This document shows positions 51,182 to 53,170 of a stretch of 64,000 nucleotides of DNA, one piece after another. Under the pieces are notes generated by a model. That model was not told the origin of the DNA and searched no databases. It saw only the letters and a list, made by a program, of their open reading frames with translations. The stretch is taken from assembly GCF_027944115.1 (NCBI RefSeq), contig NZ_JAPJZI010000001.1:3844001-3908000 (forward strand). Direction: 5' to 3'. How positions within the stretch are numbered: position 1 is the first letter of the stretch; each line of letters begins with the position of its first letter. The position numbers were made by a program, and so were the translations under genes. The DNA is from Hoeflea prorocentri. Lineage in GTDB: Bacteria; Pseudomonadota; Alphaproteobacteria; Rhizobiales; Rhizobiaceae.

Positions 51182-51940
51182 TCAGCCCTCCTCATCGGGG
51201 TAATCGACTTTCATGAAATAAAGCCCCTGCGGCCCGGCGACCGGTCCGCAAGCCGTCCGGTCTTGCGCCTCCAGCGCGCCGGCGACATCGTCCGCAGTCC
51301 ACTCGCCTTCGCCGACAAGCCGCAACGTTCCGGCAAAGGATCGGATCTGATTGTGCAGGAAGGATTGCGCCGTCGCCTCGATCTCGATCAGGTCGCCCGT
51401 GCGCCGCACGTCCAGCCGGTCCAGCGTGCGCACCGGGTTCTTGGCCTGGCAGTGGACGGAGCGGAAGGTGGTAAAGTCATGTCGACCGACAAGGCGCTGC
51501 GCGGCCTCGTGCATACCATCGGCATCGAGCGGCTTTGCCACCCAAAGCGCCCGGTTCCGCTCAAGAGCGAGCGGTACGCGCCGGTTGATGATTCGATAGA
51601 GATAGTGGCGGCGCAGCGCGGAGAAGCGCGCGTCGAAATCATCTGCAACGCGATGCGCTGACAAAATGACCACCCGCTCCCCGGCCTGGCCGAGATAGGA
51701 GTTGAGCGCATTGCGCACCGTTTCGTCCGGCCAGTCCCTCTCAAAATCGATATGGGCGACCTGACCATATGCGTGGACGCCGGCATCGGTGCGCCCGGCG
51801 CCGCGAATGGAAATATCGTGGCCGCTGAACTGGCGGGCCGCGCTTTCGATTGCACCTTGTGCGGAGGGGCCGTTGGTCTGGCGCTGCCAGCCGACATAGG
51901 GCGTCCCGTCATATTCGATGGTCAGCTTGTAACGGGGCAT
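51182..51940 (-). CDS. truA: tRNA pseudouridine synthase A
   Basis: 252 aa. Modifies U38-U40 in the tRNA anticodon stem. The catalytic aspartate is in [28 protein letters not shown] at the N-terminus and [11 protein letters not shown] near the C-terminus are conserved. The ATG at 51940 begins 2 nt from the end of a palindromic element, and no Shine-Dalgarno-like sequence is present in the 20 nt before it. Confidence 0.95.
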
Positions 51941-51941
51941 A

Positions 51942-52242
51942 AGAGCAAGTCGGGCTTAGATTGAATCATTTGACCGAGGCGATTTTGTCCTCTGACAAGG
52001 CGGATTGCGCGCCGTGGTGTTATCCCACCACAAGCGCGAGCCAACGCAGTCAGAGGACAAAATCGCCCGGCCCATTCATCTGCGCATTTCAACACGATAG
52101 TCCTTTCAAAGGTGGCGGCAAATCGGCCCATCGGCTGCGTTGCGCCGCTTGCCCGATGCACCACATCGCGCTGCGCGACGCGCCTTGCCGAGTGAACCGA
52201 TTTTCCGCCATCAAATGCTTCAATCTAAGCCCGATTTGCTCT
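51942..52242. mobile_element. 301-bp palindromic MITE-like repeat element (no coding capacity)
   Basis: Terminal inverted repeats of 32 bp, 51942-51973 and 52211-52242, match at 30 of 32 positions. Inside are two more hairpin modules: a perfect 19-bp inverted repeat (51978-51996 with 52049-52067) and a 13-bp one differing by one base (52114-52126 with 52197-52209). A further small GTGGTG/CACCAC hairpin sits in the first loop. No transposase or ORF is present. The structure resembles RIME-type intergenic mosaics of rhizobia. It fills the whole fmt-truA gap, and its right end overlaps the fmt stop codon by 2 nt. Confidence 0.82.
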
Positions 52243-53170
52243 AACCAATAACCGTTCCGGGGGCAACCGGGCTGCCGCGCAGGAATTCGTCCGCATTCAT
52301 CACCTTGCCGCCTGCCTTTTGCAGCCGCAGCAAACGCACGGCATTGATGCCGCAGGCAACCGTCAGCCCGTCATCCAGAACCGTGCCCGCCGGGCCGACA
52401 GCTTCGACCGGCGCCGAGCGCAGAACCTTGACCCGCTCCTGTTTGCCGCCAAACGGCATCTCGCACCAGGCTCCGGGGAAAGGCGAAAGGCCGCGAATAT
52501 GATTGTGGACATCGAGATTGTCGCGCCCGAAGTCGATGCGGGTCTCGTCCTTGGTGATCTTGGCGGCATAGGTGACGCCGTCCTCGGGCTGCTGCGTCAG
52601 TGTCAATGAATCGCGCTCCAGAGCGGCCATCGCCCTTTGCATCAGATCGCCGCCAATCAGCATCAGTTTGTCGTGCAGCTCGCCGGCCGTCATGTCGACG
52701 GGAATGGCAACCCGCTCCTCCATGGCGATGGGACCGGTGTCGAGGCCCTTGTCCATCTTCATGACCATCATGCCAGTCTCAGTATCGCCGGCCATGATGG
52801 CGCGCTGGATCGGTGCGGCACCGCGCCAGCGCGGCAGAAGCGATGCATGACCGTTGTAACAGCCGAGCCGCGTGCCGGTGAGCACGGCCTCGGGAAGAAG
52901 CTGCCCATAGGCGACGACGACGGCGACATCGGCCTTCAGCTCACGGAACCGGCTTTGTTCTTCCGGATCTTTCATGCTTTCCGGCGTAAAAACCGGAAAA
53001 CCCAGGATCTCTGACTGCCTGTGAACCGGCGATTTGACCAGCTCCAGACCGCGTCGGCCGGCCGGCCGGGGCGGCTGCGTGTAGACGGCGGCAATCTCAT
53101 GGCCGTAGCCCGCGAGCGCGGCCAGCGTCGGCACGGCGAATTCCGGCGTTCCCATGAAGATGATGCGCAA
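52241..53170 (-). CDS. fmt: Methionyl-tRNA formyltransferase
   Basis: 309 aa. Formylates initiator Met-tRNA. Motifs are [14 protein letters not shown], the catalytic region [20 protein letters not shown] and the C-terminal OB-like domain. It lies 37 nt after def on the same strand, the usual def-fmt order. The TAG stop is within the terminal repeat of the palindromic element. Confidence 0.96.

What the first reader, a model, noticed from the sequence alone, without database searches (positions are those of the whole stretch)
51942..52242. A 301-bp palindromic MITE-like element fills the fmt-truA gap exactly
The sequence shows 32-bp terminal inverted repeats (30/32 identical) and two nested inverted-repeat modules, with no coding capacity. 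It runs from 2 nt before the truA ATG to inside the fmt stop codon. Such nested architecture is known from RIME/ABC-type intergenic repeats of rhizobia. Such copies spread using another element's transposase or through RNA/DNA-structure processing. No second copy is in the window, so multiplicity is untested.
Basis: partly seen in the sequence, partly recalled or inferred. Interest (0 to 1): 0.72.

Follow-up and report, generated by a model that had tools for sequence, protein, structure and literature searches.

The report
Mobile cloverleaf palindrome between fmt and truA
A 299-base non-coding palindrome between two genes of a marine alphaproteobacterium is a mobile DNA element: related copies are scattered through related genomes, most relatives have an empty site here, and its two ends differ widely between copies while staying mirror images of each other.

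Summary
In detail: inverted arms of 32 bp (30/32), strong two-hairpin fold, no convincing gene, exact fit between truA and fmt. Multiplicity is now shown: four full-length copies plus fragments in the own genome, at least 28 in congener G006 (Hoeflea poritis) and 12 in G007 (Nitratireductor sp. XY-223). Exact ends are GAGC...GCTC (299 bp) between TA dinucleotides; the target is Y-TA-R. Empty sites with a single TA exist in relatives at three other loci. Six of seven congeners have fmt and truA overlapping or 1 nt apart; the seventh holds what looks like a solo arm. Joining the flanks here with one TA, but not without it, gives fmt a stop codon. So this is a trans-mobilised MITE-like element; its transposase was not found. 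New here: (1) the two hairpins are homologous and inverted, a dyad of one ~105-bp module; (2) the architecture recurs across Alphaproteobacteria; (3) the 25-bp arms are hypervariable between copies but complementary within each, without G·U bias; (4) insertion into the TA of a stop codon recreates TAG, and junctions are enriched about twofold at ends of open frames. RIME membership is not supported; relation to CIR or Bru-RS is untested.

The parts
51943..52241 (.). whole element, GAGC...GCTC, 299 bp
   Evidence: ends shared by full copies at unrelated loci; empty sites
51941..51942 (.). left copy of the TA target duplication, here AA (one base off TA)
   Evidence: TA at this place in 42 of 54 full copies
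52242..52243 (.). right copy of the TA target duplication; forms part of the fmt stop codon TAG
   Evidence: TA at this place in 45 of 54 full copies
51943..51966 (+). left arm, variable part
   Evidence: inverted repeat; compensatory changes
51967..51976 (+). constant inner block CATTTGACCG
   Evidence: near-invariant in alignment A1; used as scan pattern
51967..52073 (-). hairpin module 1, inverted homologue of module 2
   Evidence: covariance model R1, built from module-2 stretches only: 52.7 bits, E 9.6e-12
51978..52067 (.). stem of hairpin 1 (19-bp arms 51978-51996 and 52049-52067)
52111..52217 (+). hairpin module 2, ending in the constant block CCATCAAATG
   Evidence: R1 121.9 bits; this copy is among the 30 sequences R1 was built from
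52218..52241 (+). right arm, variable part
   Evidence: inverted repeat
51182..51940 (-). truA (flanking gene)
52241..53170 (-). fmt (flanking gene), stop TAG completed by the element

Best explanation
A non-autonomous mobile element (MITE-like). SHOWN: an inverted dimer of a ~105-bp hairpin module between ~25-bp inverted arms; it inserts at Y-TA-R and duplicates TA; it is dispersed, absent at the same sites in relatives, and one pair of copies at unrelated loci is 99.7% identical. SHOWN by its ends: since it begins with G after TA, insertion into the TA of a TAA or TAG stop codon leaves TAG, so the upstream gene keeps its length. INFERRED: a TA-duplicating DDE transposase acting in trans (IS630/Tc1-mariner-like most likely, an IS5-type one possible; their target habits are recalled) moves it, recognising GAGC ends and perhaps the subterminal hairpins. 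INFERRED: core sequences are exchanged between copies by gene conversion or recombination, which would give nearly identical cores between different symmetrical arms.
For: Own genome: matches over 301, 301, 287 and 285 of 301 query bases plus fragments. 8 of 8 genus genomes, own included, and 22 of 101 genomes searched, own included and with few candidates scored in each, have matches. 54 of 64 copies examined are full length: TA at the left end 42/54, right 45/54, both 37/54; base before the left TA is C/T in 42/42, base after the right TA is A/G in 43/45 (background 34% and 40%). Joined-flank query, 8 loci: continuous unfilled matches for 7 of 8; no module in any of the 15 fetched stretches. 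A single TA at the junction for L003 (2 of 2 relatives), L061 (1 of 1), L066 (1 of 1), and 1 of 2 for L091. fmt-truA: 6 of 7 congeners have TGATG or TGA-N-ATG; no module in any of the 7. Copies L091 and L092 are 99.7% identical over aligned bases. Junction TAG ends an open frame of 80 or more codons on 36 of 84 sides, against 33 of 138 control YTAR sites (Fisher p 0.004).
Against: No transposase with matching ends was found: the unpaired arms looked at in G006 and G007 have no convincing mate within 2 kb, and the own genome has no IS630-type hit. Ends differ between copies more than I would expect one transposase to allow. At L002 (TA at the junction column in 1 of 7 relatives), L069 (0 of 1) and L089 (site deleted, 1 relative) the empty sites do not show the TA clearly. 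The left TA is mutated at the locus given. One congener (G004, L043) has what looks like a solo arm at the same fmt-truA site, so the history of this site need not be a single insertion.
Confidence: 0.92

Rival explanations
1. A local structured RNA or attenuator of the fmt-truA transcript.
For: Very stable fold on both strands; pairing conserved by compensatory changes; hairpin 1 shows a G·U excess on the + strand in the genus (21 against 5 cells).
Against: Dispersed copies; no element module at fmt-truA in 7 of 7 congeners; no Rfam family reaches its gathering score, two sub-threshold hits only; no G·U over A·C excess in the arms (13 against 22 cells) and little in the core across lineages (54 against 39).
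Confidence: 0.03
2. A REPIN/BIME-like palindrome dimer moved by a REP-associated Y1 (HUH) transposase.
For: Basic unit is an inverted dimer of palindromic modules, as in REP doublets; the own genome and G006 each hold two Y1_Tnp hits.
Against: G007 has 12 full copies but no Y1_Tnp match (98% complete); TA is duplicated, which HUH transposition does not do (recalled).
Confidence: 0.05
3. The element is a decayed relic, once mobile, now kept and spread mainly by recombination and gene conversion.
For: Own genome has few, diverged copies (75-87%) and solo arms or halves; no helper found.
Against: A 99.7% identical pair at different loci in G007 and many copies in G006 suggest recent spread there.
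Confidence: 0.2
4. Arms vary because different insertion sequences lend their ends: each arm type belongs to another transposase, the core is a shared passenger.
For: Discrete arm types shared between species, and TAGAGC and TATACC end types on the same core; copies with about 95% identical cores and 52% identical arms (L115/L119).
Against: No insertion sequence with the arm types tested was found: types AATTCTGAG, GTGTCTGGC, GAGTTGTGA and GTTTCATGG (coordinates read for G006 and G007 only). Other arm types were not tested.
Confidence: 0.35

Closest known systems
RUP of Streptococcus pneumoniae (MITE proposed to be moved by IS630-Spn1)
   Same: Small, non-coding, TIRs, TA at the ends, dispersed; TA target (PMC2229807, passages)
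   Different: RUP is 107 bp and its ends resemble those of its proposed helper; here ~300 bp, two homologous inverted hairpin modules, covarying arms, no helper found
Correia/NEMIS elements of Neisseria
   Same: TIR, target duplication, TA termini, dispersed, strong hairpins (PMC2229807, passages)
   Different: No inverted module pair is mentioned in the passages seen; not compared by sequence
CIR repeats (Caulobacter, Brucella; Chen and Shapiro 2003)
   Same: Alphaproteobacterial, intergenic, two long inverted repeats joined by a linker, as described in PMC2229807 (passages)
   Different: Described with GANTC at a loop and without end pairing; sequences could not be read, so relation is untested
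RIME / Sm / AB,C repeats of Sinorhizobium
   Same: Repeated intergenic elements or palindromes of a rhizobium (PMC2573895 and PMC2245857, passages)
   Different: No module match on pSymB; sequence and ends of RIME not available here
Bru-RS1/2 of Brucella
   Same: Related repetitive palindromic elements of 103 and 106 bp (PMC10800456, passages)
   Different: About the size of one module; sequence not compared
Br-REP1/Br-REP2 of Bradyrhizobium
   Same: Intergenic palindromes of Hyphomicrobiales, some with flanking palindromes (PMC5082802, passages)
   Different: Their quoted consensus sequences share no word of 8 bases with the window's element
REP / REPIN / BIME
   Same: Palindromic units, in inverted pairs
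   Different: 20-40 bp units with GTAG or CGTC tags (PMC3733652, start of abstract and passages); here ~105-bp modules and TA duplication

Membership tests
MITE | short and non-coding | tested here: met
   299 bp; ORF list only: three short overlapping ORFs, judged spurious, not tested further
MITE | terminal inverted repeats | tested here: met
   32 bp, 30/32; 94% of arm cells paired over 53 copies
MITE | target site duplication | tested here: met
   TA, single in empty sites of L003, L061, L066; unclear at L002, L069, L089
MITE | dispersed multi-copy | tested here: met
MITE | autonomous partner with the same ends | tested here: inconclusive
   none found, but congener assemblies are drafts, not all arm types were tested, and for most bacterial repeats of this kind no partner had been found or looked for (PMC2229807, passage)
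RIME | sequence similarity to RIME1/RIME2 | not testable with these tools
   paper not held
RIME | same module present in S. meliloti replicons | tested here: not met
   0 matches at E 0.01 on pSymB; that pSymB carries RIMEs is recalled; the chromosome was not searched
CIR | GANTC in a hairpin loop | not tested
   paper not held; no count was made
REPIN/RAYT | cognate Y1 transposase in genomes with many copies | tested here: not met
   G007: 12 full copies, 0 Y1_Tnp hits
Rfam RNA family | gathering score reached | tested here: not met
   only two sub-threshold hits (mir-3017, Xoo5)

The most novel reading that the evidence does not exclude
An ancient alphaproteobacterial superfamily of mobile DNA recognised largely by its folded shape: the enzyme that moves it would read the GAGC/TA ends, the constant CATTTGA/TCAAATG blocks and the paired hairpin modules, while the arm sequence is free as long as both arms match. 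This would explain arms that differ between copies yet are almost perfectly complementary in each, with no RNA wobble signature.
Probability: 0.22. Interest if true: 0.82.

Novelty: new variant of a known kind. Interest (0 to 1): 0.6.

Why it matters
A bacterial MITE is normally tied to one insertion sequence by the sequence of its ends (recalled). Here one structural core occurs across several orders of a class with many different, nearly always symmetrical ends. That makes a testable question: is transposase recognition by sequence, by shape, or by swapping of ends? The Y-TA-R target, together with an end that recreates TAG, also suggests how such elements could settle at gene boundaries and inside operons at low cost to the upstream gene.

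Tried and rejected
Helpers. IS630-type transposases (PF13358): 0 in the own genome, hits in 4 of 8 genus genomes, none with ends like the element. IS5/IS427-type (PF13340): hits in 8 of 8; L157 has GAGCC ends but with a TCA duplication; L158 looked like a TA-flanked pair of 18/22, but by eye the stretch holds an ABC transporter gene and a truncated transposase, and I read the two ends as separate element ends after TAG stops. L187: a far mate arm at 1.4 kb encloses no transposase that I recognised by eye. Y1 transposases: hits in 6 of 8 genus genomes, none in G007. Arms unpaired in the pattern list: 16 in G006 and 8 in G007 looked at over about 2 kb each way; two of the G007 ones proved paired at element distance; weaker hits were not fetched. 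In one search the list was cut; I read pairs by coordinates for G006 and G007 only.

RNA reading. The G·U against A·C test depends on the pair set. In A1, hairpin 1 shows G·U excess (21 to 5 on pairs common to both strands, 40 to 10 on the union), hairpin 2 shows 8 to 2 on common pairs but 41 to 40 on the union; only 4 of 53 copies fold better on the + strand. Across lineages it is 54 to 39 on common pairs and 193 to 270 on the union. So it does not establish an RNA on one strand, and does not exclude one for hairpin 1.

Control mended. The first stop-codon control (36 of 85 sides against 37 of 195 sites) counted sites with too little DNA upstream and so favoured my reading; one search repeats it with equal reach: 36 of 84 against 33 of 138, p 0.004. 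Only the latter is used.

Plasmids. A blastn of the element against 72,556 plasmid records found two, each over under 20% of the element: Thalassospira marina and Agrobacterium sp. MA01.

Rows dropped. 10 of 64 copies (L102, L103, L105, L106, L108-L113) because the best single alignment did not span both ends; L114 left out of A1; L250 left out and without a module match; 17 of 64 collection-scan hits below the arm-pairing limit, one of which (L229) does carry a module. For the module model, 9 of 47 scan loci were dropped before listing, and 30 of the 48 listed stretches were used.

Literature. Searches: I saw listings with the starts of abstracts, and passages of seven papers (PMC10800456, PMC5082802, PMC2229807, PMC10969869, PMC2573895, PMC2245857, PMC3733652), none read whole. 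None that I saw describes this element. The library holds open-licence papers only, and the key older ones were not held, so an earlier description cannot be ruled out.

Full report
Where it is. The window is G000:C1:3844001-3908000, a genome of 5.04 Mb in two contigs.

The sequence feature is real. No Rfam family reaches its gathering score.

It is a dispersed repeat. In the own genome, matches cover 301, 301, 287 and 285 of the 301 query bases at 100, 86, 87 and 75% identity, with shorter pieces elsewhere. 8 of 8 genus genomes hold matches, own included, and 22 of 101 genomes of the wider search at E 0.001, own included; that search scored few candidates per genome, so counts are lower bounds. 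I fetched 60 copies from congeners, chosen from the best hits, plus four of the own genome; 54 of these 64 align end to end: 4 from G000, 28 from G006, 12 from G007, 10 from others. With a model of module 2 (R1), G006 has 50 matches, G007 20, G000 7 at E 0.01; these counts include matches on the opposite strand of the same palindrome and matches to module 1.

Ends and target. The ends are exact: GAGC...GCTC between TA and TA. TA is intact at 42 of 54 left ends and 45 of 54 right ends, both at 37 of 54. The base before the left TA is a pyrimidine in 42 of 42 and the base after the right TA a purine in 43 of 45, against 34% and 40% at TA sites in the flanks. The target is thus Y-TA-R.

Empty sites. 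A query of joined flanks of 8 copies found continuous unfilled matches for 7 of 8; none of the 15 stretches fetched holds a module. The junction reads one TA in both relatives for L003 (an own-genome copy, empty in G006 and G007), and in one relative each for L061 and L066. For L091 one relative has TA and one reads TGA. For L002 TA stands at the junction column in 1 of 7 relatives, for L069 in 0 of 1, and for L089 the site is deleted in the one relative.

The fmt-truA site itself. In 6 of 7 congeners fmt and truA overlap (TGATG; L044, L045, L046, L047) or are 1 nt apart (L041, L042); none of the 7 holds a module. In the window, joining the flanks with one TA gives fmt TAA overlapping the truA ATG (TAATG); joining them without TA leaves no stop codon in fmt at that place (from the sequence). 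In the seventh congener (L043, G004) 46 bases stand between fmt TAG and the truA ATG, and by eye most of them read as a solo arm of another arm type. The site may have been hit twice, or an older insertion was lost in others; I cannot tell which.

Stop codons. Because the element begins with G, a TA target inside TAA or TAG yields TAG. At the junctions, TAG ends an open frame of at least 80 codons on 36 of 84 sides, against 33 of 138 YTAR sites in the same flanks with the same reach (p 0.004, which replaces a biased control). This is open-frame evidence, not annotated genes, and selection against damaging insertions may explain it as well as targeting.

Arms. Over 53 copies the 32 arm pairs are 94% paired; 272 cells have changed on both sides; 0 of 500 shuffles reach this, and sliding by one column drops pairing to 38-42%. 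Related rows can exceed such shuffles, but here cross-lineage arms tell the same story (below). The outer GAGC and the inner CATTTGA/TCAAATG are nearly constant; the ~20 positions between vary. Mismatches left in arm columns 1-25 are G·T 13, A·C 22 and other 21, so there is no sign of RNA wobble there. Copies with almost the same core can have quite different arms: L115 and L119, core 95%, arms 52%.

Spread over the class. A scan of one genome for each of 84,980 species for the two inner blocks at the shorter spacing gave 64 hits; 47 have arms paired at 15 or more of 25 positions, with titles naming Hyphomicrobiales, Rhizobiaceae, Hoeflea, Nitratireductor, Kiloniellales, Rhodospirillaceae, Pelagibius, Roseibium, Ahrensia, Anderseniella, 'Alphaproteobacteria' and one 'Proteobacteria bacterium'. 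The 17 others, many from unrelated phyla, are about as many as I reckoned by chance without a call. In 46 of the 47 (one arm is cut by a contig end), left and right arm agree at 22.7 of 25 positions within a copy and 13.0 between copies. Across 46 of 47 cores, 34 of 46 stem pairs common to both strands show two or more Watson-Crick types. R1 finds matches in 15 of 190 genomes drawn from the class, own included (stricter filters).

Dyad. R1, built from 30 module-2 stretches, also finds module 1 in the window, on the other strand (52.7 bits), and a direct alignment of one half with the reverse of the other supports it (score 10.5 against a best of 5.0 in 300 single-base shuffles and -3.0 in direct orientation). 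By my count, 27 of the 47 scan loci show two such modules in inverted, non-overlapping order; 16 of the 17 rejected loci have no match. (21 of the 47 gave their module 2 to R1, so only module 1 is independent there.) Shorter forms in G006 (213 bp, three seen) keep one module. Of four elements of G002 and G005 with other interiors, three are weak R1 matches (L147, L188, L192; not L187), L147 as an inverted pair.

Mechanism. A TA-duplicating DDE transposase acting in trans is the simplest account. No helper was found: the own genome has no IS630 hit, and arm-type searches and neighbourhoods in G006 and G007 show no insertion sequence with these ends. Assemblies of congeners are drafts and not every arm type was tested, so a helper could be missed.

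Comparison. It works like RUP or Correia elements and is best called MITE-like. It fails the one test of RIME kinship that I could run (pSymB). CIR and Bru-RS remain possible relatives, since they are alphaproteobacterial palindromic repeats and I could not compare sequences. If either turns out to share the module, the novelty shrinks to the architecture and spread.

Noticed in passing
L043 (G004), 2431-2476: 46 bases between fmt TAG and truA ATG, most of which look by eye like a solo element arm of a different type: possible second, independent hit of the same site.
   Followed up: partly
window 51938-51975: On truA's strand the element's left arm directly precedes the ATG and shows no Shine-Dalgarno-like run to my eye; in relatives truA overlaps or touches fmt. 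Translation of truA may be uncoupled here.
   Followed up: no
L147, L187, L188, L192 (G002, G005): A sister group of 193-284 bp elements with TAGAGCATGTCT ends and other inner blocks; three of the four are weak matches to module R1.
   Followed up: partly
G000:C1:3692028-3692098 and 3702032-3702119: Two half elements on the same strand, 10 kb apart, with their outer arms facing each other.
   Followed up: partly
G000:C1:910562-910590 (L279): By eye, a stretch of about 70 bp with both element ends and nearly no core, probably a deletion form.
   Followed up: no
G000:C2:25717-25743 (L186): A solo arm on the second contig.
   Followed up: partly
L158 (G001), 1130 and 2705: Two element-like ends directly after TAG stop codons, around what look like an ABC transporter gene and a truncated transposase.
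   Followed up: partly
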